Source: Bacillus sp. 491mf (GTDB taxonomy: Bacteria; Bacillota; Bacilli; Bacillales; Bacillaceae_G). From it: a DNA stretch of 58,135 nt. Position 1 is the stretch's first letter, and each line of letters opens with the position of its first letter. The notes below the pieces were generated by a model that worked only from the letters and a program-made list of their open reading frames with translations, had not been told where the DNA came from and ran no database searches. This document shows, piece by piece, positions 16,961 to 40,780 of this stretch. Both the position numbers and the translations under genes were made by a program. The stretch lies in contig NZ_FOLV01000023.1 of the NCBI RefSeq assembly GCF_900112415.1, forward strand, positions 1 to 58,135, read 5' to 3'.

Positions 16961-16985
16961 AAGAGCTAGATAATTACTAGCTCTT
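16961..16985 (-). terminator. Terminator of the relaxase gene
   Basis: AAGAGCTAG and CTAGCTCTT form a 9-bp stem overlapping the relaxase stop. On the minus strand it is followed by TTCTTTTAAAAG. Confidence 0.75.
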
Positions 16986-19900
16986 ATAAATCTAAGTCTA
17001 CACCTCGTTGTCTTGGACGTTTTATTCTCATTGCTCTTGCTTGTCGTTGTCGTTCCTGAGTTTTTCTATCCGCATCACGTTCAGCTTGCTCAATAGCATA
17101 TAAAATTTCTCCAATTAGACCACCCGCATGTGAATGCTCAGAAGTAGGGATATCAGGTGTGAATTTCGATTGCCACGCTGAACCTTTTTCTACAAATACA
17201 TCTCCACAGTTTTCACATTCCTCACGGAATAATCTCATGAGCGTTGGATTATTTATGTCTATTCCGTACTTATCTAAAACAGCTTGATATGTTGCATAAT
17301 ATTTTTCTAATGTTGCAATATCTTTTTCAGCTTCTTCAGTATTTTGTTTTTCAAAGACAACAATTGCTTTCTTAATTTCTTTCATATTACTAATTGCATC
17401 GTAAATTTCTTCACGCTGATTATAGTTGAATTTTGGTGAATCTTTTAATGTAGAAAATTCAGATACACCAATTACACGGCCATAATAACGATTTGTTTCT
17501 AAAATTTGATGCGCTTGTTCAGGTGTAAAGTATTCAATTTCTTTCCATTCAGGATATTGAAGAGCAAGTTTTAAGATTTCTCTTTCACCAACTACCTCAA
17601 ATGCCTTTTCGATAATTGCTTTCTTTTGTTCATAAGCTTGTTCTTGTGAGAACACTTCTTCAAATTTTGCTTGATTTGCTTTTTGGAACGCCATTTGATC
17701 TGGTGCTTTTCCAAGCCCTTTGGCAAGTTCATCTAGTTTGCGTTCAAATGTACGTTTCCAATTTGTTAATTTATTCATTTCTACTTTCAGTTTTTCATAA
17801 CTTGGCTCTTTAACATAACGTTTTGCATTTTCAATTACTTTGTCACCTTGATATCCTTCAACAAGATAAGCAAATGTTTGTTTTGTAATTTCACCATTTT
17901 GCTTAATATGATCGAATACATATCTTAATTCATCTTTTGTAAATGGTGAAAGGAAGTCTAAGCTAAAGCGTTTGTTGAGTTCGCGAGTTGCTTCGTTTTC
18001 TAATACAACTTTTGCATCTTGAATAATTTCTCGTTGTTGATGCAGCTTATATAACTTTTCATACAATTCATTATTTGATGGATCATTACTAATTTGCTTA
18101 AGTAAAGATTTTTCCCATTTATCTAATTGATCTAAACGTTTTTCACAAGCATCATAACTTACAAAACGTTTCAATTCTTTTGAAGCTAGTTTGATGCTTT
18201 CTCTTTCTTCATTCGTTAAGCTACCTTTTTGCGGACCATCTCTTTCTGGTTTTTCTGGCGCTTCTTTTTTCCAGAACATGTCTCTTTGTTGCTTATATTC
18301 TTCTCTAAATAATTTCAAGAAAGACTTATCCTCGATGCTGAAACCATATTTAGCATACATATTTTCTTTTTGTGTTACAGCGTAATTTTGTAGCAATTGA
18401 ATCTTATTTGAGGATTCTTCAGAACCATCTTTCTTAAACATTGGAATTGCCTTTTTAATTTCTTTTAGTTCGTCTAAAGCTTCATAAATTTCTTTTCTTT
18501 CTTCTTTTGTGAAGCGTGTAAGCTGTTCACGGTTTTCTAATTCGTCAACAGATAATGTACGTCCATGATAACGATTTAACTCTTGAATATCTTTTAATTC
18601 ATGAACAGACAAGTAAGGGAGACGATCCCAATTTGGGTAAGATGCAACTACAGTTCTTCGTAACTCACGCTCTAAAATATCGAAACCATTTTCAATCGCA
18701 TTTCGTTTTTCTTTATACCAGGATTCACGATTTGTAATAGTATCAAATTCTTCTTTATGTTCAGCTTTAAATGCTTTAGGATTTTGTGACTTATTCATTT
18801 GTTCAAATAACTCTTGTTTTCTTTCCTGAAGATTCGATTCCCATCTAGTAAGTTTGTTCAATTCTTTTTGTAGAGTATCAAGCGTGATTGGTGTATCTTT
18901 CATATAACGTTTTGCAATATCTAATTGTTTTGATTGACGATATTCTTCTACCCAATTTATTAAATCATCTTCACTGATTTTGCCATGCTCTTTCATGTGT
19001 TGATATAGTGTACATAATTCACCTTTTGTAAACTCAGATAAAGATTCTGTACTAAAGTGATTTGGAAGTTCTCTAAGTGCTTCTTTTTCAAAGATATCTA
19101 CAGCATTTTCTATTACAGTTTTTTGTTCAGTTACTTTATATAATTGTTGATACAATTCATTATTTGTTGGATCTAATTCTAATTTATTTTGGATACGAGA
19201 TTCCCAATTTTTCAATTGCTCTAAACGTGTAGAACATGATTCATAATTTGCGTATTTTTTTATAACTCGACTTGCATCTTTTAAAGAAACTTTTTCCACA
19301 ACAGACAGTGTATCAAATTCTTTTTCTTGTTTACGAGTTTCTTTAATACGCTGTTTTTCTTCATGGAAAGAACGTACTTCCGCATTATATTTTTTAATCT
19401 CACGATTCAGATCACCTTTCGGTGTTCTGATTCCCTTTTTCTCCATTGCATTTTGTTTCGGACCAAGATGTTGTGTTGGCACGAATAGAAGAGTGTCTTT
19501 TTCTTTTCCTAAGTGAGTATCTAATCGTAAATGAGTAATGCGTTCTTCAAGACCCGCTTTTGCTAATGCTTCATTTGCATGTTTCGCCCACATGGAGCGA
19601 GCTTGAGTAATTGTATCTTTCTCCGCAACAAAACCACGACCACCTTTTACATTTTTGAAACCTGGATTCCATTCCCTTGCCTTTTTTCCAAAACCATTTT
19701 CGTCAATATATCTCATTGTGAGCATGACATGAAAATGCGGATTATTTTCGTCATCACGGTGAATCGCAACATCAGCAACCATTCCATGATTAACAAAATT
19801 TTCTTGAACAAACTCTCTCACTAATTCTTCTTGCTGTTCATGATTAAGTTCTTTTGGAAGCGCAACATTAATTTCTCTTGCTAATTGTGAATCAGATCGT

Positions 19901-20130
19901 TTTTCAACTTTTTCAACTTCATTCCACAATGCTTGACGATCATACACCCACTCAGGAGAATTTTCAGGAGCTAAAACGAAGGCAACAGGTTCTACACCAC
20001 GATGATAAAATTTAATCTCACCTGTAGTTTCATCCACCAATCTGTCTCCAGAACGGTATGCAGCAGCCGCAACTACGTTTCGACCTTCAGATCGTTTGAT
20101 TACTTGGGTATTGTAGTGATAGATTGCCAT
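16984..20130 (-). CDS. mobA: MobA/MobL-type (MOBQ) relaxase with a tandemly duplicated C-terminal module
   Basis: This relaxase would nick oriT and lead the strand into the recipient. From ATG 20130, after GAGGAGGTGA, it has 1048 residues. The N-terminus (MAIYHYNTQVIKRSEGRN, AAAAYRSG) and the metal-binding AIHRDDENNPHFHVML motif near residues 120-134 are those of MobA/MobL; the catalytic tyrosine is probably the one in the AIYHYN segment. The rest is helical and contains two related copies of about 320 residues (roughly 285-610 and 648-970). A longer upstream frame at 20202 lacks a ribosome site. The gene faces the candidate oriT at 20253-20280 and diverges from three accessory genes. Confidence 0.9.
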   Translation of the reverse strand: MAIYHYNTQVIKRSEGRNVVAAAAYRSGDRLVDETTGEIKFYHRGVEPVAFVLAPENSPEWVYDRQALWNEVEKVEKRSDSQLAREINVALPKELNHEQQEELVREFVQENFVNHGMVADVAIHRDDENNPHFHVMLTMRYIDENGFGKKAREWNPGFKNVKGGRGFVAEKDTITQARSMWAKHANEALAKAGLEERITHLRLDTHLGKEKDTLLFVPTQHLGPKQNAMEKKGIRTPKGDLNREIKKYNAEVRSFHEEKQRIKETRKQEKEFDTLSVVEKVSLKDASRVIKKYANYESCSTRLEQLKNWESRIQNKLELDPTNNELYQQLYKVTEQKTVIENAVDIFEKEALRELPNHFSTESLSEFTKGELCTLYQHMKEHGKISEDDLINWVEEYRQSKQLDIAKRYMKDTPITLDTLQKELNKLTRWESNLQERKQELFEQMNKSQNPKAFKAEHKEEFDTITNRESWYKEKRNAIENGFDILERELRRTVVASYPNWDRLPYLSVHELKDIQELNRYHGRTLSVDELENREQLTRFTKEERKEIYEALDELKEIKKAIPMFKKDGSEESSNKIQLLQNYAVTQKENMYAKYGFSIEDKSFLKLFREEYKQQRDMFWKKEAPEKPERDGPQKGSLTNEERESIKLASKELKRFVSYDACEKRLDQLDKWEKSLLKQISNDPSNNELYEKLYKLHQQREIIQDAKVVLENEATRELNKRFSLDFLSPFTKDELRYVFDHIKQNGEITKQTFAYLVEGYQGDKVIENAKRYVKEPSYEKLKVEMNKLTNWKRTFERKLDELAKGLGKAPDQMAFQKANQAKFEEVFSQEQAYEQKKAIIEKAFEVVGEREILKLALQYPEWKEIEYFTPEQAHQILETNRYYGRVIGVSEFSTLKDSPKFNYNQREEIYDAISNMKEIKKAIVVFEKQNTEEAEKDIATLEKYYATYQAVLDKYGIDINNPTLMRLFREECENCGDVFVEKGSAWQSKFTPDIPTSEHSHAGGLIGEILYAIEQAERDADRKTQERQRQARAMRIKRPRQRGVDLDL

Positions 20131-20252
20131 TCGTTTCACCTCCTCATAAATTGAAACTGCTAAACTAAACTTCAAAAGACCCTTCAGGCAACACCGCAGC
20201 ATAGCGAGGACGATTTTTGGTTCTTTGGTTTTCGCGTCGCAGACCGCACACT

Positions 20253-26777: not shown

Positions 26778-28007
26778 TCAAGTAAGTCGGAATGCATTAG
26801 GTACATCTATATCATTAGAAATAAGATCTATAACTAATTTATGACGAGTGTCATCATCTAAATAAGTATCACTCCATGAAACGAGTGATTCACGAAGTTT
26901 TGCTCGTATAAATCCACCGATTGTTTTTATTTTTTCACCGATTGCTAAGAAGCTTTCACATTGATCCATTGCATAGCTCATTGCATAAGTCATAAAGCTA
27001 TCACGAAGCTGTTTATTCTTAATAAAAGCAGCAATTAATGATATTTCGCCTTTGTATGCAACAGTGATATCTTTGCGTTCTTTATTTGTTAAAGCAATAC
27101 CTACTGATTCAAGACGAGCCATTGCTTCTTTACGCATTTTAGCTTCTGTTTGTCTAATTTCAGCTCGATCATTTTCAATCACACATGCAGGATTCATACT
27201 AACCGTAAATTGAGTGATAACAATTTGTTGAATCTTTTCACGTATACGAGCTATGCGTCCTTTACGTGGGTTTCGAACCTTTTTTATAGCAGCATCAAAT
27301 TTGAACACTGGTAAGATAATTTTCAAGTAGTTACGAACTTTTTTTGCATTTCGCCCTAAACGTTCTTTTAAGCCGTCCATATTGCGAGTGAAATAATAAT
27401 CTTCAACAGAATTTTTGCTATATTCAAGTTGATGAGTGAAGTTAGTGCATAGGTTTAAAAATTCAATAATCCCTTTGCTGTCACGATGGGAAACTAACTC
27501 TTTTAAAATAGAAGTCTCTAACAATAAGTGAGGAATTCGAAAATATGAAAGTTTTCCATCATTATCTTTTGTTTCTTTTGATGTACGATTTAATCTTGAA
27601 TAGTTGCAAATTTCATACACTGGAATTTTTCCGTTAATAAAAATTTCTTTAACAAGTCCAGAATGAAGTAAAGCTTGGAAACCTGAATGAATAGTTGTAT
27701 AGGGTATATCAGATTCGTTCGCGATAGTAGATAGTTTGAAATCGCGAGGAAGTCGCCCTAAATCATTTACCTTATAGTGAAGTAAAATGTAAGTGGCTAA
27801 TGCGGATGAAGGCAAAGCATATTCTCCAAGCTCGTTATTTTTGATTAAATATATACGAAGCTCATCAAAAAACTTTGGCCCATGCATGAGGTATTTCGAT
27901 GTTTTATTTTTTTTGCTAAATTTCATGTTTGTTTTAAATGTTTTTGAACCTATTTGAATACCATTTGTTAAATCGGTAGCAGTTACAGTTTCAAAACTTG
28001 TTACCAT
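26778..28007 (-). CDS. Putative plasmid replication initiator (winged-helix)
   Basis: The 409-residue basic protein has an N-terminal winged helix (LSTIANESDIPYTTIHSGFQALLHSGLVKEI), typical of initiators that read DNA with such a fold, and a long C-terminal helical part rich in R and K (KKVRNPRKGRIARIREK). It has no Walker motifs. It starts at ATG 28007 after GGAGG. A divergent small RNA gene lies just upstream and could be a countertranscript. No other gene in the window looks like an initiator. I am moderately sure; a large HTH regulator is the alternative. Confidence 0.5.
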   Translation of the reverse strand: MVTSFETVTATDLTNGIQIGSKTFKTNMKFSKKNKTSKYLMHGPKFFDELRIYLIKNNELGEYALPSSALATYILLHYKVNDLGRLPRDFKLSTIANESDIPYTTIHSGFQALLHSGLVKEIFINGKIPVYEICNYSRLNRTSKETKDNDGKLSYFRIPHLLLETSILKELVSHRDSKGIIEFLNLCTNFTHQLEYSKNSVEDYYFTRNMDGLKERLGRNAKKVRNYLKIILPVFKFDAAIKKVRNPRKGRIARIREKIQQIVITQFTVSMNPACVIENDRAEIRQTEAKMRKEAMARLESVGIALTNKERKDITVAYKGEISLIAAFIKNKQLRDSFMTYAMSYAMDQCESFLAIGEKIKTIGGFIRAKLRESLVSWSDTYLDDDTRHKLVIDLISNDIDVPNAFRLT

Positions 28008-28102: not shown

Positions 28103-28108
28103 CTTAAT

Positions 28109-28717: not shown

Positions 28718-28747
28718 GTGTCTTGTGTTTGGGAGGGGAGCACTCTA

Positions 28748-29890
28748 TTGGAGAATCTGATGAAAAAGTTGTTGAAAATTAAAGAGGAGAAGAATATAAG
28801 TAGTAGGCAACTTGCAAAGGAGATTAGAACGAGTAAAACTACTATTGATAACGGGCTTCAATGTAAAACGGAGGAGTTTAAATTTGAAGTTTTCTTAAAG
28901 TTAGTTCATTACATTTGCGATAGTTTGGAAGAGCAAAGACAAATGATTCATGAGTATATTCTTCTATGTAATACATCATTAAATGTACGGAAGGCATTAT
29001 GCTATTGTCAAGCAATGGGAGAATACGATTTAATGAAACAAATTATAGAAAAACATGCCGATAAAAAGGGATTAAAGAAGTATTTAGCTGTTTATAAGAT
29101 TCAAAATAAAAGGAATCAAAATGTTGCAAGAGGGCAACAACTTCTCGATGAAATATATACAAAAGATTTTTCATCAGATACAGATTGTCAAGCGGCCTTA
29201 AATATTCTATATATGGAAGCTATGTATGATAAGCAAAATTACAATGCTGTTCTTCCATATGCTGATCGTACAGAAGTTAACTTGAAAGAAGTAAGACAAG
29301 ACTATATTAAACAGTGTTTACAAATGAAATATAAGGAACGACTAGCATATATATATTTAATGAGGAACGATTTGGAAAGATGTCGTAATATATGTTATGA
29401 AATTTTGGATTCTGAAATGGATATTTCTATAATCAAGGCTACAGCTTGGTGCTGTTTGGGCGAAAGTTTTATCTTTGAATGTCCATATACAGCTGAAAAA
29501 TACATAAAAAAAGCAATTTCTTTATGTGAAAACATTCAAGTTCCACAAAAGGCACAAAAATATCTTGCCTTTCATACCACGTTAGCACATCTGTATATAG
29601 AAAACGGTATTAATCTAGATGAAATAAAGTTTGACCTTATTCATAAGTCTGAATTAGCATTTTATGAATGTATGTATGGTGATTGGGAAAAAGGAATTAA
29701 ATTATATGAGGAATTAAGAAAAGACGGAAAAAAACTTACCTCTTTTCAGATGTATTCGTTTTCTAAAGTGAATAATGATATAATAGGATTAAAAGAATCT
29801 TTAGAATCTTTCGAATTGGAAGGTAATGTTTTTTATTCGCAATACGTCAAGAAGGATCTATTAAAAGAAGAGGTGAAGTCATGTGAATAA
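28748..29890 (+). CDS. aimR: AimR-like arbitrium receptor/transcription regulator
   Basis: The protein has an N-terminal HTH (NISSRQLAKEIRTSKTTIDNGL) and a long array of tetratricopeptide-like helices (YIYLMRNDLERCRNICYEIL, ECPYTAEKYIKKAISLCEN, AFYECMYGDWEKGIKLYEEL), the layout of RRNPPA regulators. Length (380 residues from TTG 28748, behind GGGAGGGG) and order fit AimR of SPbeta-like phages. A tiny signal-peptide gene overlaps its 3' end, as for aimP. In phages, AimR activates aimX until bound by the peptide and so sets lysis or lysogeny; here it would tune a plasmid trait. A Rap or PlcR relative is the alternative. Confidence 0.75.
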   Translation: MENLMKKLLKIKEEKNISSRQLAKEIRTSKTTIDNGLQCKTEEFKFEVFLKLVHYICDSLEEQRQMIHEYILLCNTSLNVRKALCYCQAMGEYDLMKQIIEKHADKKGLKKYLAVYKIQNKRNQNVARGQQLLDEIYTKDFSSDTDCQAALNILYMEAMYDKQNYNAVLPYADRTEVNLKEVRQDYIKQCLQMKYKERLAYIYLMRNDLERCRNICYEILDSEMDISIIKATAWCCLGESFIFECPYTAEKYIKKAISLCENIQVPQKAQKYLAFHTTLAHLYIENGINLDEIKFDLIHKSELAFYECMYGDWEKGIKLYEELRKDGKKLTSFQMYSFSKVNNDIIGLKESLESFELEGNVFYSQYVKKDLLKEEVKSCE

Positions 29891-30029
29891 ATTTCTTGTC
29901 GCTACGTTATACACGGTAATAATATTGATATCGTTTTTTCAATTAGAAGCACCAGAGTCACAACACGTACAATCACTAGGAACAAATATACATGATATAC
30001 ATTTGAAAGCCGATCCCGGTGGGGGCTGA
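29883..30029 (+). CDS. aimP: AimP-like signalling pre-propeptide (C-terminal ADPGGG)
   Basis: A GTG start at 29883, 6 bases after GAGGTGA and overlapping the aimR stop by 8 bases, opens a 48-codon frame. The product has a basic start, a hydrophobic export segment (FLVATLYTVIILISFF), a polar linker and the C-terminus KADPGGG. AimP and Phr peptides are exported, trimmed and re-imported as 5-6 residues, so the mature signal is probably ADPGGG or DPGGG. A strong terminator follows at once. Confidence 0.75.
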   Translation: MNKFLVATLYTVIILISFFQLEAPESQHVQSLGTNIHDIHLKADPGGG

Positions 30030-30043
30030 GCCGATTAGATGAG

Positions 30044-30075
30044 AAAGACGCTACTAACAAGTAGCGTCTTTCGTA
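30044..30075 (+). terminator. Terminator of aimR-aimP
   Basis: AAAGACGCTACT (30044-30055) pairs perfectly with AGTAGCGTCTTT (30060-30071) around a 4-base loop. Confidence 0.85.
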
Positions 30076-30170
30076 CTTTCTAAGGATGGTTCATTATTTA
30101 ATATCGAAAAAATTTCGTGCCACTTTGTATAAAAAAATATATATTCAAGTGAAATATGGGAGGTTCGAAA

Positions 30171-30278: not shown

Positions 30279-30284
30279 CATGTT

Positions 30285-30677
30285 TCAACTGTTTTTTAAT
30301 TTGTTTTTAGTTTCAATTCTATGTGTTAAATACTTGGCATACTCAATTAATTCATTTTCTAATAATGGTTTATCCTTATCTGGAACGCTCTTATAACTTT
30401 CATATAAGTCGTGTGCTAAACGTTCTACAATAATCTTTCTATCTTCAGTTGTAAGCGCTTCGCTATCGCCAATTTTATGATTTAGGAGTCGGTCAGTACT
30501 TACATTAAAATAAATAGAGATCTTTTGAAGCATTTCAAAACTTGGTTCTTTCCTGTTATTTTCCCAATTGGAAATAGTGCTACTTGCGACTCCTAGATTA
30601 TCACCAAGTTCTTTCATATTTAATCCCTTGAGGGTTCTTAGGATCCTAACATTTTCTCCGAAATAATTCTGTATCAT
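30285..30677 (-). CDS. XRE-family repressor
   Basis: The 130-residue protein has a classic Cro/cI helix-turn-helix (KELGDNLGVASSTISNWENNRKEPS, residues about 22-46) and a helical C-terminal part likely used for dimers. It diverges from the small XRE gene at 30824 across 146 bp with palindromic sites inside the opposing promoter, an arrangement like phage repressor/Cro switches. It sits between the arbitrium-like pair and the conjugation operon, so it may control transfer genes. Confidence 0.8.
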   Translation of the reverse strand: MIQNYFGENVRILRTLKGLNMKELGDNLGVASSTISNWENNRKEPSFEMLQKISIYFNVSTDRLLNHKIGDSEALTTEDRKIIVERLAHDLYESYKSVPDKDKPLLENELIEYAKYLTHRIETKNKLKNS

Positions 30678-30757: not shown

Positions 30758-30803
30758 AAACTATCCGAAAAGGATTGACATTCTCCTTTTAGGAGAATAG
30801 AAT
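30758..30803 (+). promoter_or_regulatory. Promoter with palindromic operators
   Basis: TTGACA (30775-30780), 17 bp, then TAGAAT (30798-30803) form a strong promoter for the gene at 30824. The whole spacer is a perfect palindrome TTCTCC-TTTTA-GGAGAA (30781-30797), and a second dyad (AGGATA, then TATCC) lies just before the -35. A repressor bound here would block polymerase. Confidence 0.8.
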
Positions 30804-30823: not shown

Positions 30824-31039
30824 TTGACCATGTTACGTAATATTAGAGAACTAAAAGGTTTTACAATTCAGGATGTGTCTAAAGCTTCTAATATACCTGT
30901 AAAAACTTTATATCATATTGAAACAGGTAAAAAGGGTCTTATTGAGAAACGTGCAAAGCTTCTTGCTAATCTCTTTAATGAACCGGTTGAAAAACTATTT
31001 TTCGTTACGTATTATCGTGCATTACCCATCGCAGAATAA
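30824..31039 (+). CDS. Small XRE-family regulator (Cro-like)
   Basis: The 71-residue protein is mostly a helix-turn-helix (FTIQDVSKASNIPVKTLYHIETGKK) with a short C-terminal helix. TTG 30824 is the likely start, 7 bases after AGGGGG; ATG 30830 is the alternative but is too far. It is driven by the operator-bearing promoter at 30775. As the first gene before the adhesin and secretion genes, it may be a transfer activator or a Cro-like antagonist of the divergent repressor. Confidence 0.75.
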   Translation: MTMLRNIRELKGFTIQDVSKASNIPVKTLYHIETGKKGLIEKRAKLLANLFNEPVEKLFFVTYYRALPIAE

Positions 31040-31220: not shown

Positions 31221-33398
31221 ATGATTTTGAAACGATCTTATCAAGCGCTATTACTCACTATGAGTGTACTTTTATTAGTAATGAGCTTCTTAATTCCGAT
31301 GAATAAGGCTAGTGCAGAAGTCATCAATCGTGAGAAGTATGAAATGGATTGGGCATATAGTCCCCAATTCGGTAAAGAAATCCGCACAGAGCTTCTAAAA
31401 AATGCGAGTGGTCAAATTGCGTATTGTCTTGTACACGGGTTAAAGTCTCCTGATGGCCAAGATTTGCCAGAGCAAGGTAGAACGGATGATATTGTGTATC
31501 GTATCTTGTTAAATGGATATCCACAAAAGAGTCCACAAGAACTTGGGGTTTCTACTTGGGAACAGGCTCATTACTCGACGCAACTTGCTGTTTGGAATGC
31601 ACTTGGTCAAATTAATGTGGATGAGCTACAGTTCAAAGATACGGCTGTTAAACAGGCAACAAAAGCGATTATCAACGCAGCGAATGCGAGCCAAGATACA
31701 CAGGATGTATGGATGAATATCGTTCCTGTTGATAAGCAAGAAGCGAAATTAAACGGCGAATACTTCGAAACAACGTATACAGTTCAAACAAATGCGCAAA
31801 AGGGTACATTCAAAGTACAACTGAGTAATGCGCCAGAAGGAACAAGAGTTGTAACAGAAAAAGGTGAAACAAAAGAAACGTTCCAGTTAGATGAAAAGGT
31901 TCGCGTGCAAGTGCCGAAATCCTCTAAGAGCAGCGAATTATCCTTAAAGGTCGTTTCGAATCTAACGAATTATCATGCTGTTGTTTATAAAGGAACAGAT
32001 TCAATCCAGGATGCAACAGTACTATTAGAACGTAATAAAGAGCAAGTAAGCGCAGACTTACAAGTGTACTGGAAAGCAAACGGATCGCTAAAAGTCATGA
32101 AAGTGGATGAGAACAAAAAGCCGCTTTCAGGAGCAACGTTTGAAGTCTTTAACAGCAACAACCAAAGTATGGGAACGATTACAGCTAACGAAGGTGGTAT
32201 TGCTCAATTAGGAAACTTAGAACTAGGCACTTACAGTGTCAAAGAAATTAAGGCGCCTGTAGGATATGTGTTAGATTCCAACCCAAGGTCCATTGAAGTA
32301 AAAACAGGTGAAGTTGCTGTAGTTGAAATGAAAAATGAAAAAATTAAAGGCAATATTCAAATCAAAAAAGTTGATGATTCAGGAAAAGTTCTTTCGGGTG
32401 TAGAGTTTACAGTGTTCACACAAGAAGGCAAAGAAGTAACGAAGGTAACTACTAACGAGCAAGGGATTGCAGAAGTTAAAGGTCTTCCATACAACAAATA
32501 CATCTTTAAAGAAACAAAAGGTGTTCAAGGATATCTTCTAAATGATACAAAATATCCGTTTGAAATTAAGGAGAACGGAAAAGTACTGACATTTACAGTG
32601 GAGAACAAACAAGTAAAAGGGAACGTACAGCTCCTCAAAATCGATCAAGAAAATGCTGATAAGAAATTAGAAGGCACAACATTTATTTTACAAGACAGTA
32701 AAGGGAAGGAAATCAGTGAACATACTACTGATAAAAATGGGCTAATTAAAGTTAATAATTTACCATTTGGAGAGTATCAATTTATCGAAAAAGTATCTCC
32801 AAAAGGATATGTTCTTACTAAAGAGCCTATATCTTTCCGTATTACAGAACATGGAAAAACAATTGAGTTAGTCGCAAAAAACAAACAAATCAAAGGAATC
32901 CTTGAAATTACAAAAGTGGACGTTGCGAATGGGAACACAAAACTTCCTAATGCAGAATTCACAATTTATAATGAGCAAGGTCAAGAGGTAGTGAAAGGAA
33001 AAACAGACAAAAATGGAATTGCGAAATTCGACAAATTGGCCTTTGGAAAGTATACGTATAAAGAAACATTTGCTCCAGAGGGCTATTTATTAAATGAAGA
33101 AACATTCTCTTTTGAAATTAAAGAAGATGGTCAGATTATCAAACACACCGTAAAAGATCAAAAGAAATCGACACCAACACCACTAGAACAACCACAAAAA
33201 CCACAACAAGAACAACCACAAAAACCTCAAGATATTGAAAAACATCCAGAACAAAACGAGAAAAAACCTGAAAGTAAACCACTGCCAATGACAGGAGGAA
33301 AAGAGAGTCCATATAGATCCTGGATTGGAATTGGAGTCCTTGTTATTGCTGCATTTGTAATGGCTTATGCATTTAAAGTAAATAGAAAAACAAGATAA
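31221..33398 (+). CDS. LPXTG surface adhesin with thioester domain and four CnaB repeats
   Basis: The 725-residue protein has a signal peptide (to NKASA, about 32), an N-terminal thioester domain with cysteine in IAYCLVHG and glutamine in STQLAVWNAL, a beta-rich linker, four Cna B-type repeats (near 288, 378, 466 and 556, each starting G-x-L/I-x-KVD and ending GYxL), a P/Q-rich wall-spanning region and LPMTG with a membrane helix and KVNRKTR tail. Sortase would attach it to the wall. Thioester domains can bind host or cell surfaces covalently; before conjugation genes it likely aids contact between mating cells. RBS AAGGAG. Confidence 0.92.
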   Translation: MILKRSYQALLLTMSVLLLVMSFLIPMNKASAEVINREKYEMDWAYSPQFGKEIRTELLKNASGQIAYCLVHGLKSPDGQDLPEQGRTDDIVYRILLNGYPQKSPQELGVSTWEQAHYSTQLAVWNALGQINVDELQFKDTAVKQATKAIINAANASQDTQDVWMNIVPVDKQEAKLNGEYFETTYTVQTNAQKGTFKVQLSNAPEGTRVVTEKGETKETFQLDEKVRVQVPKSSKSSELSLKVVSNLTNYHAVVYKGTDSIQDATVLLERNKEQVSADLQVYWKANGSLKVMKVDENKKPLSGATFEVFNSNNQSMGTITANEGGIAQLGNLELGTYSVKEIKAPVGYVLDSNPRSIEVKTGEVAVVEMKNEKIKGNIQIKKVDDSGKVLSGVEFTVFTQEGKEVTKVTTNEQGIAEVKGLPYNKYIFKETKGVQGYLLNDTKYPFEIKENGKVLTFTVENKQVKGNVQLLKIDQENADKKLEGTTFILQDSKGKEISEHTTDKNGLIKVNNLPFGEYQFIEKVSPKGYVLTKEPISFRITEHGKTIELVAKNKQIKGILEITKVDVANGNTKLPNAEFTIYNEQGQEVVKGKTDKNGIAKFDKLAFGKYTYKETFAPEGYLLNEETFSFEIKEDGQIIKHTVKDQKKSTPTPLEQPQKPQQEQPQKPQDIEKHPEQNEKKPESKPLPMTGGKESPYRSWIGIGVLVIAAFVMAYAFKVNRKTR

Positions 33399-33977: not shown

Positions 33978-34022
33978 TTAAAACATGTTTTTACGTTATT
34001 AAAAATATTGGGAGGAATTCAA

Positions 34023-34364
34023 ATGAAACTATTTAAGCGTTTCAAACACTCGAAAAGTCAATTGGCGTTTTGGTTAGCGATGTTTGTTTTATTAGCTCCA
34101 GGTGCAGCATCAGCAGAAGGGGCAATTGATCCAAATGCAGCCATTTCTAAAGTATTAACAGCGATTATTGGGGTAGGGGCTGGGATTGCTACAGCTTATT
34201 GTGTTGCTAATGCCTTGTTCTTAATTATTGGTTATATGTCAAAAAAAGAAGCGCATGATCGTGCGGAATTAAAAGGGAAATTGCAGTATCTAGTTATCTT
34301 AGAAATGTTAGCACTGACAATCAGCGGCATTATCTACTGGATTAAAGGCTTATTAGGATACTAA
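34023..34364 (+). CDS. VirB2/pilin-like membrane protein
   Basis: The 113-residue protein has a basic start, a hydrophobic signal (FWLAMFVLLAPGAASA), then two membrane helices separated by a short KKEAHDRAELKGK loop. That is the layout of VirB2-type pilins and Gram-positive TrbC-like proteins. Start ATG 34023 follows GGGAGGA. It precedes the PrgI-like and VirB4 genes, the usual order. Confidence 0.7.
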   Translation: MKLFKRFKHSKSQLAFWLAMFVLLAPGAASAEGAIDPNAAISKVLTAIIGVGAGIATAYCVANALFLIIGYMSKKEAHDRAELKGKLQYLVILEMLALTISGIIYWIKGLLGY

Positions 34365-34376
34365 GGATGATTTTCT

Positions 34377-34745
34377 ATGAATGATTACATGTTAGAAGAA
34401 GCAGTCAAACGAGTTTTAGGGAAAGTTTTATTAGGTGATGAATCTCGAAAAGGTAAAGGGTTTTATATTCCAATGTTTATCGATTCAAAAACGCAAATGT
34501 GGGGCATGTATGTGACAGATTTGCGTTTTTTTCTCCCAAGTGCTCTGTTTGGGATACTTCTCTTTTTTCTTAATACACCTTGGTGGGCCCAACTTTTTAT
34601 AGACTTTACCTCTTTTGTACTCACACTGGCTTTAGTAAAGATAAGACCTTTAAGACGAGATATACCGGCTTATCAACATATTGGGTGGTTCTTTAACTAT
34701 AGAAAAAGACAGAAGCGTTTCTACTATAGAAAGAAGGTGAAATGA
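34377..34745 (+). CDS. PrgI/VirB3-like conjugation protein (TrsC type)
   Basis: The 122-residue protein has a cytosolic N-terminus, two close membrane helices (LRFFLPSALFGILLFFL and LFIDFTSFVLTLALV) and a basic tail (RKRQKRFYYRKKVK). Size, topology and position before VirB4 fit PrgI/TcpE/VirB3 proteins that dock the VirB4 ATPase at the membrane. Confidence 0.7.
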   Translation: MNDYMLEEAVKRVLGKVLLGDESRKGKGFYIPMFIDSKTQMWGMYVTDLRFFLPSALFGILLFFLNTPWWAQLFIDFTSFVLTLALVKIRPLRRDIPAYQHIGWFFNYRKRQKRFYYRKKVK

Positions 34746-34746
34746 T

Positions 34747-35466
34747 ATGCTGAAGTTTTTACAAAATGCTTTAATTAATCGCCAGAAAAATAAAGAGCAG
34801 GAGAAAGAATTAAGCGCACAAGAAATGCTTGTTGTAGAAGATATAAAAGATAATGTGATGATAACCAAAGATAAGAAGTTAGTAATGGTGTTTTGGGTAA
34901 GTGCAATCAATTTAGACTTAATGTCAAATGATGAACAAATTTATGTATTCGAGTCATTTGAAGCCTTTCTTGCAGGGCAAGAAGAAGGGTTTCAAATTGA
35001 AAATATAGCACAACCTGTAAATTTACGGAATTACACTCATTTTTTAGCTGATAGACATGATAATGAGTGCAATCAATTCAAAAAGCGTTTATTAGCAAGT
35101 TATGCATTATTTGCAAATGAGCAGCAAGTTGTAAAAGATGTCATCAAGAAAGAACATTATGTAATCATCGATCAGAAAATTGAAGGTAATGACGAAATTG
35201 CTTATCAAGAAGCTTTACAAGAACTTCGACAGAGAGGAAAAGAAATGCAGGATCAAATTATTTCAATGTTGGGGCAAGATATGAATTTGGAATGCTATAT
35301 GTTGTCAAATGGCCAACTACTTGCTTTGTTACAAATATTCTACAACTATATTGAATCGGTTCATGATGCTTTACATGATGTGGAGGTTCCTCAAATTATT
35401 CGTTGGAAGGATCCAGAAGAAAATCGTGTAGAAGAGCATACAAGTAATGATTATAAAGCTGTATAA
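34747..35466 (+). CDS. TrsD-like transfer protein, probably the split VirB4 N-terminal domain
   Basis: The 239-residue soluble protein begins with a coiled segment and continues MITKDKKLVMVFWVSAINLD, then FESFEAFL and NCxF-like segments similar to N-terminal domains of VirB4. The VirB4 gene that follows is short (640 residues), so the two may be halves of an ancestral long VirB4, as the TrsD/TrsE pair of pSK41/pGO1 seems to be. Start ATG 34747 follows GAAGGTGA. Confidence 0.6.
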   Translation: MLKFLQNALINRQKNKEQEKELSAQEMLVVEDIKDNVMITKDKKLVMVFWVSAINLDLMSNDEQIYVFESFEAFLAGQEEGFQIENIAQPVNLRNYTHFLADRHDNECNQFKKRLLASYALFANEQQVVKDVIKKEHYVIIDQKIEGNDEIAYQEALQELRQRGKEMQDQIISMLGQDMNLECYMLSNGQLLALLQIFYNYIESVHDALHDVEVPQIIRWKDPEENRVEEHTSNDYKAV

Positions 35467-35498
35467 AATAAGGGAAAATTGAGAGGAGGGTGATACAA

Positions 35499-37421
35499 AT
35501 GTTGAGATTGTTGGGGAAAAGGAAAGAAAAAGTAACACAAGAAATTTTTGAAGAAAAAGAATTAATAACATTTAAAGACTTACTTGCTCCTGATGTTATT
35601 GAAGAAAAAGAAGAATATGTGCAACTTGGAGGAAACTATACAAAAACAATAGGGATTTATGACTATCCTAAACATGTTTTTGGAAATTGGCTTTCGCAGC
35701 TTAGAAGATTCAAAGGTAACTTATCTATTTCGGTCCATATAGAAAGAAAACCTAGTGAGGATATGCTTAAGCATTTAAATAGTGCTATTCCTGAATTAGG
35801 TTCTCGTGAAGTAAATGCAGATCAAAGGACGAAGCGTGAATCTAAATTAGAAAAGAAGAATGCTGAGCTTCTTTTAGATAAATTAATTGAAAGTGATCGA
35901 GATGAAGTATTTGCTGTGCATATGTACCTTCACATACAGGCACAGAGTATGAAACAACTTGATAAATTAAATGAGCAAGTTATGCGTGTTGTGCGAAGAG
36001 CAAAACTAAAAGGCACAGAGATTAGGCATCGTTCACTGGAAGCTTTTCACTCTACTTTACCAATTCGACAAAATCAAGTACCTGAGGTCACAAGACGTGA
36101 TATGGATGCTGAAGCATTATCTAGTTTGTTTCCGTTTGATGATTCTGAAATTTTTATGCAGTCTGAAACGGCCATCATTAAAGGAATTAATATTACCACA
36201 GGTAGTTTGGTTATTGTAGATCATTTCAAACTACTGAATCATAACGAGTTTATCGCAGGTTTTAGTGGTACAGGAAAAACAACAACGCTTGTATCGGACA
36301 TTCTTCGGCATTGGATTATGGGGATTATAAATTACATTATCGATCCAGAAGGTGAGCTTACTCCAATTGTAAAAAAACTAGGCGGTACAGTTATTAAACT
36401 TTCAAATATGTCTAAAACCGTTATTAATCCATTAGAAATTTTAAATGCTGAGATTACAGATACAGAAGGGTTTGATGATGAGGGAGAAGTGGAAACATTT
36501 ATGGCTTCATTGCTAGCCCAGAAAATTCAAAGATTGAAACTTTTATTCCGAACAGTAAAGAAAGGCTTATCTCAAGTAGAGGAAGCGTTAATAGAAAAAA
36601 TATTGCTAAAAACCTATGAAAATTGTTCGGCTAACATTACACATGAAACAGATTTTAGAAACTTAAAATCAACGGATTTTCCGACCTTTACAGACATGAT
36701 GAAAGAAATAGAAGGATTGCCATCGGAGGAAGCACATATATTACGCGACTTCAAATTAATTTTTGAAACATATGTGACTGGTTCAAATTCAAACTTATTC
36801 AATGGACATACAAATGTGGATTTAACAAATGATTTAATTTCTTTTGATTTAAAACATCTTGAGGATGGTTCCGATTTGAAGAGAACGGCAATGTACAACG
36901 TTATTACATTCTTGTGGGATGAAATAACAAGGGATAAAACAAGGTTGAAACGTTTAACAATTGATGAGTGTCATGTAGTAGCAGATCCAGATGAACCTCT
37001 TTTAATGAAATTCATTTATCAAATTTATAAAAGGATACGAAAATATAAAGGTGGTGCAACCGTAGCAACGCAGCAAATTGAAGACTATCTAAGTGCAAGT
37101 GATGGAAAAAGAAACTACGGTGCAGCCATCATTGAAAACTCATATACAAAGTTTATTTTAGGCTTAGAAGAACGTGGATTGCAAGACCTAGTTACAAAAG
37201 GTGGTATTCAATTATCAGCAAAAGAATTAGATATTTTACGAAGAAAGATTCGTTGTAAAGGTATTTATTGCATTGGAACCAAACGAGTCCATATGGAAGT
37301 AGTACAAACGCAAGAAGAAGTGCGGCTGTTTGATGCAAGCCGATATGAAAAAACGTTTGGAAGAAATGCGAAGGAGATTCCAGTTTATGATATTCAAGAA
37401 TTGAAACGTGGTGTTAGTTAA
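35499..37421 (+). CDS. virB4: VirB4-family conjugation ATPase (TrsE type)
   Basis: This ATPase powers assembly or substrate movement in type IV secretion. Of 640 residues, it has Walker A AGFSGTGKTTT near 253, Walker B RLTIDECHVVAD near 485, and VATQQIEDYL in motif III position. The N-terminal 250 residues match VirB4 (PKHVFGNWLSQLRRF, FAVHMYLHI). ATG 35499 follows AGGAGGG; GTG 35490 would overlap the ribosome site. The stop overlaps the next start (TAATG). Confidence 0.92.
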   Translation: MLRLLGKRKEKVTQEIFEEKELITFKDLLAPDVIEEKEEYVQLGGNYTKTIGIYDYPKHVFGNWLSQLRRFKGNLSISVHIERKPSEDMLKHLNSAIPELGSREVNADQRTKRESKLEKKNAELLLDKLIESDRDEVFAVHMYLHIQAQSMKQLDKLNEQVMRVVRRAKLKGTEIRHRSLEAFHSTLPIRQNQVPEVTRRDMDAEALSSLFPFDDSEIFMQSETAIIKGINITTGSLVIVDHFKLLNHNEFIAGFSGTGKTTTLVSDILRHWIMGIINYIIDPEGELTPIVKKLGGTVIKLSNMSKTVINPLEILNAEITDTEGFDDEGEVETFMASLLAQKIQRLKLLFRTVKKGLSQVEEALIEKILLKTYENCSANITHETDFRNLKSTDFPTFTDMMKEIEGLPSEEAHILRDFKLIFETYVTGSNSNLFNGHTNVDLTNDLISFDLKHLEDGSDLKRTAMYNVITFLWDEITRDKTRLKRLTIDECHVVADPDEPLLMKFIYQIYKRIRKYKGGATVATQQIEDYLSASDGKRNYGAAIIENSYTKFILGLEERGLQDLVTKGGIQLSAKELDILRRKIRCKGIYCIGTKRVHMEVVQTQEEVRLFDASRYEKTFGRNAKEIPVYDIQELKRGVS

Positions 37422-38500
37422 TGAGTGCGGTCACAACTATACGTGTAGGAGGATTTCTTGCGCGGAACTGGAAAAAAATCGTGGCTGTTATTCTTGGGTT
37501 CTTTGGAATTGTGTTCTTTGTCATTGCGGGCTTTGGTGGACAACAAAGCCCATCTCTCCCTTTTAGTGGGGATGGGAAAGGTGGAAGGGCTAATGTATCC
37601 CCTGAGGTAAGAAAATGGGAGCCAGTGGTGCGGCAATATGCGGAAGAGTTTGGAATAGCTGATTATATTGAATTAATGCTTGCTCAAATGGATGCTGAAT
37701 CAGGAGGACGAGGGCTAGACCCAATGCAATCGTCTGAGGGGCCATTCAACACAAAATACTGTAAGCAAATGAATTGTATTACAGATCCGATTTATTCCAT
37801 TTGGGCAGGTGTTCAAGAATTTAGGGAAGCTCTAATAAAAGCAAAAGGCGATGCTAAATTAGCACTTCAGGGGTACAATTTCGGGTCAGATTTTATCAAC
37901 TATGTTTTTGGGAATGGTGGTGTATATAGTCAGGATTTAGCTATTGCATATTCCAGAAGCAAAAGTACAGGACAATATAGTTGCCAAGGAAGAGATCCAA
38001 ATAATTATAGGACCAAAGTAGGAGCATGCTATGGCGATTTTAAGTATGTTGAAAAAATCTTTGCGAAAATGACATTTGATCCCGCGAATCAAGGAAATGG
38101 CGGTCTTGCAGGAACTGGTGGTCAAATATTTGATGTGAATCAAGTGTATAACAGTATGGCTCAATATCTAGGTCAGAAATATGTTTGGGGAGGAGCTACT
38201 CCGCCAGGTTTTGATTGTAGCGGCCTTATGCAGTGGAATTTTAGGCAGGCTGGGATTATCCTTCCAAGGACAGCCGAGGAACAATATTATGCTACAGCCC
38301 GTGTAAATCCAGAACAACTATTACCAGGGGATTTAGTTTTCTTTTCAGGAACTTATGTTGGAAAAACGGTAACACATGTTGGTATGTACATTGGAAATGG
38401 AAAAATGATTAACTCTAATGATTCAGGTGTGAAAATTGATGACGTGTTTTCGACTTACTGGGCAAAACATTACTATGGTGGAGGACGGATTACTCGGTAA
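37421..38500 (+). CDS. Lytic transglycosylase plus NlpC/P60 peptidase (VirB1/CwlT-like)
   Basis: The protein opens the wall for the transfer channel. Its 359 residues comprise a membrane anchor (KKIVAVILGFFGIVFFVIAG), a lysozyme-like domain with the likely catalytic glutamate in MDAESGG (about 91), and a C-terminal NlpC/P60 domain with Cys in GFDCSGL (about 263) and His in VTHVGMYIG. This is the CwlT/TrsG arrangement of Gram-positive conjugation systems. Translation is coupled to virB4. Confidence 0.92.
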   Translation: MSAVTTIRVGGFLARNWKKIVAVILGFFGIVFFVIAGFGGQQSPSLPFSGDGKGGRANVSPEVRKWEPVVRQYAEEFGIADYIELMLAQMDAESGGRGLDPMQSSEGPFNTKYCKQMNCITDPIYSIWAGVQEFREALIKAKGDAKLALQGYNFGSDFINYVFGNGGVYSQDLAIAYSRSKSTGQYSCQGRDPNNYRTKVGACYGDFKYVEKIFAKMTFDPANQGNGGLAGTGGQIFDVNQVYNSMAQYLGQKYVWGGATPPGFDCSGLMQWNFRQAGIILPRTAEEQYYATARVNPEQLLPGDLVFFSGTYVGKTVTHVGMYIGNGKMINSNDSGVKIDDVFSTYWAKHYYGGGRITR

Positions 38501-38537
38501 GAAATATACGAATCAGTAAAAAAGGAGAAAAGTTTCA

Positions 38538-39104
38538 ATGAATATATTCAAAAATGTCTTAATCGTGGTTTTGCTGATTTCAACTGGAATATTGGGTTAT
38601 ACAAACTTTAAAACTTCAAATCAATTGAAACAGCAAAATGCGAAAGTTGCTAATTTGAGTAATATGGTGTTAACGAAAGGAATTAATGATACATCTCTTA
38701 AAAATGTGAATGAGGGACGAAAAGCGTTAGATGGGTTTGTAACCGCAGCCTTTGAATATTCTTCAGTAAAGGATGATCGCTATGAGAGGGCAAAAGAATT
38801 TGCAACGGATAATGGAATCAAATCAATGAATCCTTCTAGTACTAAAGAAGGGTTTCCAACTTTACCAAAAGATATTTTGTATGAATCAAAAGTTAAAAGT
38901 AAGCAAATTTATTTTACGCCAAGTGAGGATGGGAAAACTGGAAACGGTTTGATTATATTTGATAATGAAATGAAAATAAATAACCAAAGTTCCTCTTCAA
39001 AAATCTTTTTAGAATGTAAACTAGTATTTGACACGAAACAACATAAGTATCTGGTTGATGAAACAAGTGTTGTTTCTCAAACGTCATCATACAAGGAGGA
39101 ATAA
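38538..39104 (+). CDS. Membrane-anchored extracytoplasmic transfer protein, first of a pair
   Basis: The 188-residue protein has an N-terminal anchor (NVLIVVLLISTGILGYTNF), a short coiled coil and a compact outer domain of alternating strands. Position between VirB1-like and VirB6-like genes and single-anchor layout suggest a VirB8/TcpC-like scaffold or a conjugation-specific protein such as TrsF/TrsH, but I see no diagnostic motif. AAAGGAG is upstream. Confidence 0.6.
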   Translation: MNIFKNVLIVVLLISTGILGYTNFKTSNQLKQQNAKVANLSNMVLTKGINDTSLKNVNEGRKALDGFVTAAFEYSSVKDDRYERAKEFATDNGIKSMNPSSTKEGFPTLPKDILYESKVKSKQIYFTPSEDGKTGNGLIIFDNEMKINNQSSSSKIFLECKLVFDTKQHKYLVDETSVVSQTSSYKEE

Positions 39105-39106
39105 AA

Positions 39107-39793
39107 GTGAAAATCAAAAAATCAACATTATTTTTATGGGGAACAGTAGGGGTTTTAATCTTAGCGATTGGAATCATCATGCTATTTGGAAAAGAAGATA
39201 AACCATCAAAAGTAACGCAAGCAAATCAATCTAAAACTTCACAGCAAATTACTCACCAAGAAAAACCTTCTACACAACAACCACAAGCAAAAGAACAAGA
39301 CCCAAAACAACAAGATTCAAATACAAAAGACCTTGAAGTAGGAAATGTCAAAAAAGATGGTATTACAAGTAATGAAAATGAAGATGTAGAACAAGTTAAA
39401 AAACTTGCACTAGATTTTTTTCATCAATTCAATGAAAAAAATGTTGCAGGAATAGAAGCTGAAAAAGTTCAAAATGATTTGTATGAAAAAATTAAACAAA
39501 TGTTTTCAAAAGATTCACTTGAAAAATATTCAGCGCAAGAAATTGCTAAATATTACGAAAAAAACAATTTATATTCTTTTTTAGGGAAAGGTGAAAATTC
39601 TCTAGTTGATTTTAAATTAAAAGAGGTTTCTATAGAATTGGTCGATTATGTAAAAGACGCAAAGATGTACAGGGTTGCTGTAATTATCACGACTAAGCAA
39701 GTCAAAGGTTATACAGCATTAGGAATTATGAAAGAAGGGCAGGAATACAAAATTGTTTATGCACCAGATGTTCGATTTGATCTAATTAAATAA
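39107..39793 (+). CDS. VirB8/TcpC-like membrane-anchored protein
   Basis: The 228-residue protein has an N-terminal anchor (LFLWGTVGVLILAIGIIMLF), a Q/K/P-rich linker of about 65 residues and a C-terminal domain (VKKLALDFFHQFNEKN then YRVAVIITTKQVKGY) resembling the NTF2-like fold of VirB8/TcpC scaffold proteins. It starts two bases after the previous stop with AAGGAGG upstream. Confidence 0.6.
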   Translation: MKIKKSTLFLWGTVGVLILAIGIIMLFGKEDKPSKVTQANQSKTSQQITHQEKPSTQQPQAKEQDPKQQDSNTKDLEVGNVKKDGITSNENEDVEQVKKLALDFFHQFNEKNVAGIEAEKVQNDLYEKIKQMFSKDSLEKYSAQEIAKYYEKNNLYSFLGKGENSLVDFKLKEVSIELVDYVKDAKMYRVAVIITTKQVKGYTALGIMKEGQEYKIVYAPDVRFDLIK

Positions 39794-39807
39794 GAGGAGG
39801 AGTTAAA

Positions 39808-40779
39808 ATGCCAAATCCAGGTGACGTTATTAATGGTGCGATTGATAAAGTAAAGGATGCAGCTAATGTAATTTTAAATCCCATTGATACAGCTACAAAT
39901 GTGATAAAAGGTGCAGCAACCAAAAGTTTCACTGAATTACTGACAGATATTACAAAAGGTGCTGGAGAATCTGTTTTAAAATGGATTAATTGGTTTTTAC
40001 TAGATCCACAGACATATCAAAATCCTACTGTAGATACTGTTGTTGATTTCTTTAAATGGTTAGCAGTTATGTTAGCTATTGCGTTTATGATATATCATGT
40101 CCTTCAAGCAATGCTTCTTGTAAATATCACAGGTGATCGAACTTATGCAAAAGAAAAGGTGGCATCACTTATTCAAGCAATGGTATTAATAGCAATTCTT
40201 CCATGGGTGATTGAAAAGTTATTACAGCTTTGTGAGGGGATTTGTAAATACTTTACCAACAAAGGGATTGATTTTGAACATAGTGCGATAGGTAAATGGC
40301 TAACAACAGGCTCGCCTGACTCAGAATTGGCTAAAATCATGGGGTTAAATCCACAAAGTGCAGTTGCATTTATCGCAATATTCTCACTAGCATTTGTAAT
40401 CTTATTTCTTGTAATCGCATTTCAAGCTTTGAAACGAATGGGGGAATTCGCGTTCTTAGTTGCAACGTCTCCAATTGCAGCAATTAGTTTAGTAAACAAT
40501 GAAATGAATGCATTTCCTGTGTGGTGGCGTGAAATGCTTGCAGTGATATTTACACAAGTGGTGCAAGTTGTACTTCTATATCTAATTGTAAATTGTTTCG
40601 CTACTTTGCAATTAAAATTTATAGCACTTGGTATGGGATTGTGTTTAGTTCTTATTTCGGGACCAACATATTTAAGACAATTCTTATATAGTACGGGTTC
40701 AGGTAAAGCAATGGTTGGTGCAATAGGATCGATGGGGAAAGTTGCAACAGCGAAATTCATTTTAAGAGGGGGACGTTAA
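39808..40779 (+). CDS. VirB6/TrbL-like polytopic membrane protein
   Basis: The 323-residue protein has a hydrophilic N-terminal part and about six membrane helices (for example WLAVMLAIAFMIYHVLQAML and AIFSLAFVILFLVIAFQAL), with GEFAFLVATSPIAAIS, similar to TrbL/VirB6 and TrsL proteins. It probably lines the membrane channel. It follows GAGGAGG and ends one base before the EssB-like gene. Confidence 0.8.
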   Translation: MPNPGDVINGAIDKVKDAANVILNPIDTATNVIKGAATKSFTELLTDITKGAGESVLKWINWFLLDPQTYQNPTVDTVVDFFKWLAVMLAIAFMIYHVLQAMLLVNITGDRTYAKEKVASLIQAMVLIAILPWVIEKLLQLCEGICKYFTNKGIDFEHSAIGKWLTTGSPDSELAKIMGLNPQSAVAFIAIFSLAFVILFLVIAFQALKRMGEFAFLVATSPIAAISLVNNEMNAFPVWWREMLAVIFTQVVQVVLLYLIVNCFATLQLKFIALGMGLCLVLISGPTYLRQFLYSTGSGKAMVGAIGSMGKVATAKFILRGGR

Positions 40780-40780
40780 A

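What the first reader, a model, noticed from the sequence alone, without database searches (positions are those of the whole stretch)
28748..30029. Arbitrium-like aimR-aimP pair on a conjugative plasmid
An AimR-sized TPR regulator is followed by an overlapping signal-peptide gene ending KADPGGG. In phages this system counts infections to choose lysogeny; on a plasmid it could count plasmid-bearing neighbours and gate transfer, copy number or the nearby XRE switch. The target and the peptide code appear worth characterising.
Basis: partly seen in the sequence, partly recalled or inferred. Interest (0 to 1): 0.85.

Follow-up and report, generated by a model that had tools for sequence, protein, structure and literature searches.

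The report
Plasmid peptide switch beside conjugation genes
A conjugative plasmid carries the receptor and signal-peptide genes that Bacillus viruses use to count one another, placed in front of its own repressor and transfer genes, so the plasmid may use the same kind of signal to decide when to move to a new cell.

Summary
Window 28748-29890 encodes an AimR (NCBIfam 377.6 bits, cut-off 70; a profile hits solved AimR structures, no Rap or PlcR). An overlapping 48-aa AimP ORF ends KADPGGG. Next come a 13-pair terminator-like hairpin, a 35-aa ORF in the aimX position, a convergent XRE repressor, a divergent XRE gene, a SpaA/thioester surface protein and T4SS genes. Comparison adds evidence: two plasmids of one Bacillus arachidis strain carry the same AimR-AimP-ORF-XRE-XRE-SpaA order ahead of two further, different sets of conjugation genes. 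In 9 fetched plasmids with a related Rep-like gene the slot holds Rap-Phr (2), a kinase-regulator set (3) or neither (4). Four phage-plasmids have the aimR-aimP-ORF-XRE part ahead of phage genes. Best reading: an arbitrium-like switch used as a peptide-sensing gate on conjugation. AimR on plasmids and conjugative elements is already in print; its use as an exchangeable input to the conjugation switch is what looks new. Not shown: peptide binding, antitermination, direction of control. No AimR operator was found in the window.

The parts
28748..29890 (+). aimR: AimR-family peptide receptor (ATG 28760 matches the start annotated in the B. arachidis relative)
29883..30029 (+). aimP: 48-aa pro-peptide ending KADPGGG, 8-nt overlap with aimR; likely mature ADPGGG (length inferred)
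30043..30072 (+). terminator-like hairpin, 13 pairs, right after aimP; the kind of place where phi3T/SPbeta AimR antiterminates
   Evidence: z -7.1; 3 terminator-like sites in the region, shuffles mean 0.7; role by analogy with PMC10769878
30171..30278 (+). 35-aa ORF in the aimX position with GGGAGG ribosome site; its 3' end lies 6 nt from the 3' end of the convergent repressor gene
30285..30677 (-). XRE repressor-type gene (HTH_3), CI-like by position
30775..30803 (+). promoter-like TTGACA-N17-TAGAAT (11 of 12) with a dyad ATTCTCCTTTTAGGAGAAT (30780-30798) overlapping the spacer; another dyad starts at 30751
   Evidence: promoter-like sites in the region are not more numerous than in shuffles (17 vs mean 19.3)
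30824..31039 (+). XRE gene divergent from the repressor, Cro-like by position
31221..33398 (+). SpaA/thioester-domain surface protein ahead of the transfer genes
34008..44661 (+). T4SS genes: TrbC-like (34008), TraG-type ATPase (35490-37421), lytic transglycosylase/NlpC-P60 (37421), TrbL (39808), VirD4-type coupling protein (42088-44661)
16984..20202 (-). MobA/MobL relaxase
26778..28007 (-). Rep-like gene beside aimR (role inferred from position; no Pfam match over cut-off); relatives lie near aimR in phage-plasmids and near Rap or kinase genes in other plasmids

Best explanation
The locus is an arbitrium-like switch that gates conjugation. AimP is exported and trimmed to about ADPGGG and builds up where most neighbours already carry the plasmid. 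Peptide-free AimR lets transcription of aimR-aimP run through the terminator at 30043-30072 into the 35-aa ORF and on, antisense, over the convergent repressor gene. The ORF product, the antisense transcript or both weaken the XRE repressor, so the promoter at 30775-30803 fires and the second XRE gene, the surface protein and the T4SS are made. Imported AimP blocks AimR, the terminator holds, the repressor wins and transfer stops. Shown here: gene identities, order, hairpin, convergent arrangement, promoter-like site with dyad, conservation, and repetition of the block ahead of three sets of conjugation genes. Inferred: peptide processing and import, AimR binding, antitermination, ORF function and the sign of control.
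For: AimR identity. Same cassette ahead of different conjugation genes: window TrbL/VirD4/MobA-MobL, B. arachidis unnamed1 pLS20-type with MobP2, B. arachidis unnamed2 Tcp-type. Strong hairpin right after aimP in 8 of 8 AimR loci. Small ORF after it, converging on a repressor-type gene with 1-41 nt between the ends, in 7 of 8. In 9 plasmids fetched for the Rep-like gene the slot holds Rap-Phr in 2 and a kinase-regulator set in 3; Rap-Phr relieves the conjugation repressor of pLS20 (PMC7430634, passages). AimR antiterminates at a terminator between aimP and aimX in phi3T and SPbeta (PMC10769878, passages). Purifying selection on aimR and the repressor.
Against: No operator like those of SPbeta/phi3T (6-bp boxes about 25 bp apart) is conserved after the terminator in window and L001; the best imperfect repeat there is no better than shuffles (P 0.64 window, 0.67 L001, 0.27 L006), although perfect ones stand at that place in phage-plasmids L004 and L027. 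Promoter-like sites in 28000-31300 are no more frequent than in shuffles (17 vs mean 19.3). The ORF rests on 8 substitutions, and the ORF of unnamed2 does not look alike by eye. unnamed2 has no match to the VirD4 coupling-protein family and is typed non-mobilizable by MOB-suite. The Rep-like gene next to aimR leaves copy number open as target. 0 of 4 plasmids fetched for their T4SS ATPase carry AimR. No expression data.
Confidence: 0.6

Rival explanations
1. AimR-AimP controls replication or copy number through the adjacent Rep region, and conjugation only indirectly.
For: aimR is divergent from a Rep-like gene; the intergenic stretch is conserved between window and L001 although the adjacent Rep proteins differ. 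The only long-spaced inverted repeats conserved near aimR lie there (from 28021 and from 28170), and the second is part of a hairpin with a T-run also seen in L006.
Against: The convergent ORF, the XRE pair and the surface protein stay with aimR in the three conjugative cases; the hairpin looks like a Rep-control antisense RNA rather than an AimR box; some plasmids with a related Rep-like gene have other sensors on the repressor side.
Confidence: 0.15
2. The cassette is a relic of a phage-plasmid that no longer does anything.
For: Four phage-plasmids have the aimR-aimP-ORF-XRE order (phage genes); the window's Rep-like gene has relatives in L003 and L005.
Against: dN/dS 0.096 for aimR and 0.095 for the repressor, kept AimP end and overlap; the block is kept in three plasmids with different conjugation genes; conjugative and phage-plasmid AimRs lie on two sides of one branch (91/93, not a starred branch), which does not suggest a recent phage import.
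Confidence: 0.1
3. AimR acts as a plain activator or repressor at another promoter (its own, the Rep promoter or the T4SS promoter), not as an antiterminator, and the 35-aa ORF is incidental.
For: No AimR-type operator found after the terminator in the window.
Against: Hairpin after aimP in 8 of 8 loci and a convergent small ORF in 7 of 8; AimRs of phi3T and SPbeta act at this spot (PMC10769878, passages).
Confidence: 0.25

Closest known systems
Arbitrium (AimR-AimP-AimX) of phages phi3T and SPbeta
   Same: AimR family, aimR-aimP order, terminator after aimP, a transcribed element in the aimX position (a small ORF as in phi3T)
   Different: Beside conjugation genes; the ORF converges on an XRE repressor-type gene and the genes beyond are T4SS, not lytic genes; peptide of DPGGG type, not GMPRGA; the long-spacer operator was not found
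Phage-plasmid B83 and L003, L004, L005, L027 arbitrium loci
   Same: aimR-aimP-small ORF-XRE order with DPG-type peptides in most (B83 from PMC6669507 passages; L027 lacks DPG)
   Different: Those stand ahead of phage genes; the window AimR is 22-26% identical to the three compared, L003, L004, L005
pLS20 Rap-Phr-Rco conjugation switch
   Same: Plasmid-encoded receptor-peptide pair acting on the repressor of the conjugation operon; the peptide shuts transfer (PMC7430634, passages). The likeness to the window is expected, not shown
   Different: Rap binds the repressor protein; the AimRs studied in the papers read act on DNA
PrgX/TraA pheromone systems of enterococcal plasmids
   Same: Peptide-receptor control of conjugation
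   Different: Different receptor subfamily; named from paper passages and general knowledge, not compared by sequence here

Membership tests
AimR receptor family | Scores over curated AimR profiles | tested here: met
   377.6 vs 70 bits; 120 vs 26.7. Control: the profile rings in 4 of 14 named genomes, over the cut-off in 1
AimR receptor family | Nearest solved structures are AimR, not Rap or PlcR | tested here: met
   5 distinct AimR sequences at 1.3e-23 to 4.2e-20; next hit a designed ankyrin at 2.7e-4. Profile of 6 rows, two partial; the single-sequence search found no AimR. The fold prediction never finished
AimR receptor family | N-terminal helix-turn-helix | tested here: inconclusive
   HTH_19 at residues 6-54, 18.7 bits, E 0.0017, below the Pfam cut-off of 30.2; weak match of residues 6-63 to CylR2 (E 0.1). 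The AimR model aligns from residue 10 on
Arbitrium system | aimP directly downstream encoding an exported pro-peptide with the signal at its C-terminus | tested here: met
   for position, size and conserved end; export signal judged by eye, mature length not tested
Arbitrium system | Terminator between aimP and the aimX position | tested here: met
   (predicted hairpin)
Arbitrium system | AimR operator (two boxes about 25 bp apart) downstream of aimP | tested here: not met
   none conserved in window and L001. The locus is therefore called arbitrium-like; only the receptor is filed as AimR family
Arbitrium system | Peptide binds AimR and blocks its action | not testable with these tools
   needs binding and reporter assays
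Rap-Phr | Rap N-terminal domain | tested here: not met
   no Rap family listed for the window protein; RapH_N is found in the B. pumilus pSHB9 protein of the same slot
Temperate phage or phage-plasmid | Phage structural genes | tested here: inconclusive
   10 window proteins scanned; one terminase-family match (46.5 bits) by the TraG-type T4SS ATPase and one PHROG of unknown function; not all ORFs were scanned

The most novel reading that the evidence does not exclude
Bacillus-type plasmids have a plug-in sensor slot between the Rep-like gene and the repressor that governs conjugation, into which AimR-AimP, Rap-Phr or kinase sets are swapped; and because conjugative plasmids and phage-plasmids share near-identical DPG-type peptides, plasmids may overhear arbitrium phages and one another when deciding to transfer.
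Probability: 0.3. Interest if true: 0.82.

Novelty: new variant of a known kind. Interest (0 to 1): 0.64.

Why it matters
Arbitrium is known as a virus decision system. If the same receptor, peptide and repressor layout decides when plasmids conjugate, one signalling toolkit serves both viral lysogeny and plasmid transfer, and signals could cross between them. B. arachidis YX15, with two plasmids whose AimPs end VDPGGG and MDPGGGL and whose AimRs are diverged, is a natural test bed for specificity.

Tried and rejected
Rap or PlcR identity: rejected. Relatives by degenerate DNA scans: none confirmed in viral contigs or genome contigs; tblastn against phages at 1e-5 gave no match. These methods miss diverged AimRs: the AimR of B. 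arachidis unnamed2 was not hit by tblastn from the window protein and was found through the repressor gene, so the misses say little about how common the arrangement is. Whole-genome context of the window: none held. SPbeta-like operator search: negative. Structure prediction: queue full, accepted, unfinished at every later collection; no fold result is claimed. Host identification: megablast of three parts of the window matched no plasmid over most of its length; best 29% of one part, B. arachidis. Rfam over the aim region: nothing at E 0.5. Shared replicon as the anchor: the Rep-like protein next to aimR is unrelated to RepFR55 of unnamed1; a RepFR55 relative (40% over 144 residues) does lie further off in the window.

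Limits: of 32 plasmid records with a relative of the Rep-like gene, neighbourhoods of 9 were fetched for it and 3 were already held (L003, L005, L009); 20 were not read there, C02 among them. Of 3307 records with a TraG-ATPase relative, 4 were fetched for it; the two B. pumilus ones came by the Rep list. tblastn found AimR in 7 plasmid records (union); published censuses report more, so this set is incomplete. The tree holds 8 rows, two of them partial proteins (L004, L002). Shuffles keep base or column composition only, not dinucleotides.

Full report
What is there. The window has an ORF at 28748-29890 (TTG; ATG at 28760 matches the start annotated in the closest relative) and an overlapping ORF at 29883-30029 ending KADPGGG. 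The first is an AimR: 377.6 bits against a cut-off of 70 for the NCBIfam AimR equivalog, 120 against 26.7 for Pfam AimR, 359.9 for phrog_1728. A single-sequence search of solved structures found no AimR, but a profile of six related sequences hit five distinct solved AimR sequences at 1.3e-23 to 4.2e-20 and no Rap or PlcR. The HTH itself is weakly matched (18.7 bits, below the Pfam cut-off).

Anatomy. Directly after aimP stands a hairpin of 13 pairs with a T-rich tail (30043-30072; folding z -7.1). Then come a ribosome site and a 35-aa ORF (30171-30278), an XRE gene on the other strand whose end is 6 nt from the ORF's end, an intergenic region with TTGACA-N17-TAGAAT and a perfect dyad over its spacer, a second XRE gene, and a 725-aa SpaA/thioester surface protein. 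Promoter-like sites in this stretch are not more numerous than in shuffles (17 against a mean of 19.3); terminator-like ones are (3 against 0.7). Downstream on the same strand are TrbC, TraG-type ATPase, lytic transglycosylase, TrbL and VirD4 homologues; a MobA/MobL relaxase lies on the other side.

Relatives. In 72,556 plasmid records, tblastn from three AimRs gave 7 records. With the window that is 8 loci. Three stand ahead of conjugation genes: the window, B. arachidis YX15 unnamed1 (AimR 88% identical) and unnamed2 (AimR 23% identical over 220 residues). Four are phage-plasmids with portal and capsid genes. One, C02, has an aimR with an in-frame stop and no XRE pair seen next to it. The three conjugative plasmids carry different conjugation genes: the window's, a pLS20-type set with VirD4, VirB4 and MobP2 in unnamed1, and a Tcp-type set (TcpD, TcpE, an ATP-binding protein, an FtsK-like DUF87 protein) in unnamed2. 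unnamed2 has no match to the VirD4 family and is typed non-mobilizable by MOB-suite, so its transfer is less sure. The DNA shared by window and unnamed1 covers about 28009-31595 at 82.7% identity: the aim block, the XRE pair and the start of the surface-protein gene. The Rep protein beside it is unrelated in unnamed1. So the block looks like a unit that outlives exchange of the neighbouring replicon and T4SS genes.

Conserved features over the 8 loci: a strong hairpin right after aimP in 8 of 8; a small ORF next, converging on a repressor-type gene with 1-41 nt between the ends, in 7 of 8, not in C02; an AimP with a DPG motif near its end in 7 of 8, not in Priestia, where it ends TTFIAGRY. Peptide ends: window ADPGGG, unnamed1 VDPGGG, unnamed2 MDPGGGL, B7M1 QDPGGGL, C02 ADPGSGMG, Rossellomorea QDPGTGGGF, A. 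caldiproteolyticus RDPGDIG. A DPG motif is reported as widespread in AimR-family peptides (PMC12700828, passages).

The slot. Of 9 plasmids fetched because they carry a relative of the Rep-like gene, 2 have a 366-aa protein plus a 41-aa peptide ORF overlapping by 4 nt in this slot (the pSHB9 protein carries RapH_N and TPR; the pONU554 one was not scanned and its length differs by one codon at most), 3 have a hydrolase, a histidine kinase and a response regulator, 1 has a kinase-regulator pair beyond the repressor, 2 have HTH genes only, and 1 shows no such arrangement. A tenth, L009, held for its T4SS, has the Rep-like gene but no sensor or HTH pair between it and the T4SS. A repressor-type HTH gene pointing back is annotated in 8 of the 9; a divergent HTH partner only in some. 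A Paenibacillus larvae plasmid has an XRE pair before conjugation genes with no AimR annotated in the 24 kb read. A search of 15 whole records with the AimR profile found it over the cut-off in 3, all already known, and under the cut-off in 1 more; 0 of the 4 records fetched for their T4SS ATPase had it. So the sensor looks exchangeable where it exists, and many related plasmids have none.

Selection. Between window and unnamed1: aimR dN/dS 0.096, repressor 0.095, aimP 0.36, 35-aa ORF 0.20 but on only 8 substitutions, so weak. In aimP one of the last six residues differs (A to V).

Mechanism. The layout matches antitermination as reported for phi3T and SPbeta (PMC10769878, passages read): a terminator between aimP and aimX that AimR overrides unless AimP is bound. 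The convergent ORF and repressor gene allow two ways to weaken the repressor: the small protein, and antisense transcription. In pLS20 a Rap-Phr pair relieves the conjugation repressor and the peptide restores repression (PMC7430634, passages). By analogy, AimP should shut transfer when most neighbours carry the plasmid. Against it: the boxes AimR needs, as known from SPbeta (PMC6458997, passages), were not found after the terminator in the window. At that place perfect 10-bp inverted repeats occur in the Rossellomorea and Priestia phage-plasmids (0 of 200 shuffles as good), one-mismatch ones in L003 and L005 (P about 0.07), and nothing better than chance in L001, L006 and L002. The site may be degenerate, or lie elsewhere; the only conserved long-spaced repeats near aimR are on the Rep side. 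I therefore file the receptor as an AimR but call the locus arbitrium-like.

Descent. In a tree of 8 AimR rows the conjugative three and the phage-plasmid four fall on two sides of one branch with 91/93 support, below the starred level, with C02 in neither group and unnamed2 on a long branch. One old move between phage and plasmid is compatible with it, not proven.

What is known. AimR on plasmids and conjugative elements is in print: PMC9765709 (97% of plasmid AimRs with a propeptide candidate), PMC10769878 (introduction) and PMC6669507 (clade 7 with conjugative elements); passages read in each. I did not find a paper on AimR controlling conjugation: searches of the open library with arbitrium+plasmid+aimR+conjugative (17 papers), arbitrium+conjugation (36), AimR+type IV secretion (0) and AimR+AimP+plasmid transfer (1), judged from the listings and from passages of 9 papers. 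The main census (Stokar-Avihail 2019) is not held, so it may contain this.

Noticed in passing
window 28074-28238: Promoter-like TTCACA-N17-TATAAT followed by a long stem-loop and T-run on the + strand, upstream of the Rep-like gene, kept in L001 and (by eye) L006 beside other Rep genes; loop holds CGCCAA. Candidate copy-control antisense RNA; no Rfam match.
   Followed up: partly
window 651-1978 and 9432-9524, with ORFs 2573-8803: CRISPR repeats (RF01352) on both sides of a Cas-like operon (Cas naming by eye).
   Followed up: no
window 24912-26137: RepFR55-like gene present as two overlapping ORFs on the - strand, near the Rep-like gene next to aimR (only the 25622-26137 ORF was compared).
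   Followed up: partly
L001 and L006 (B. arachidis YX15): Two plasmids of one strain with diverged AimRs but AimP ends VDPGGG and MDPGGGL: a natural case to test pheromone cross-talk (the 23% identity is window against L006, and L001 is 88% like the window).
   Followed up: no
L002 9881-11268: C02 plasmid: aimR with an in-frame stop beside an open aimP ending ADPGSGMG, no XRE pair seen.
   Followed up: no
L027 6554-6630, L004 11328-11399, L005 11367-11430: TTTAAGTAAA-N15-TTTACTTAAA (L027, perfect), AAAATAGGGG-N18-CCCCTATTTT (L004, perfect) and a one-mismatch repeat with the L027 box in L005, just after the aimP terminator: candidate AimR operators.
   Followed up: partly
window 24043-24108: Bacillus-plasmid RNA RF01691.
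   Followed up: no
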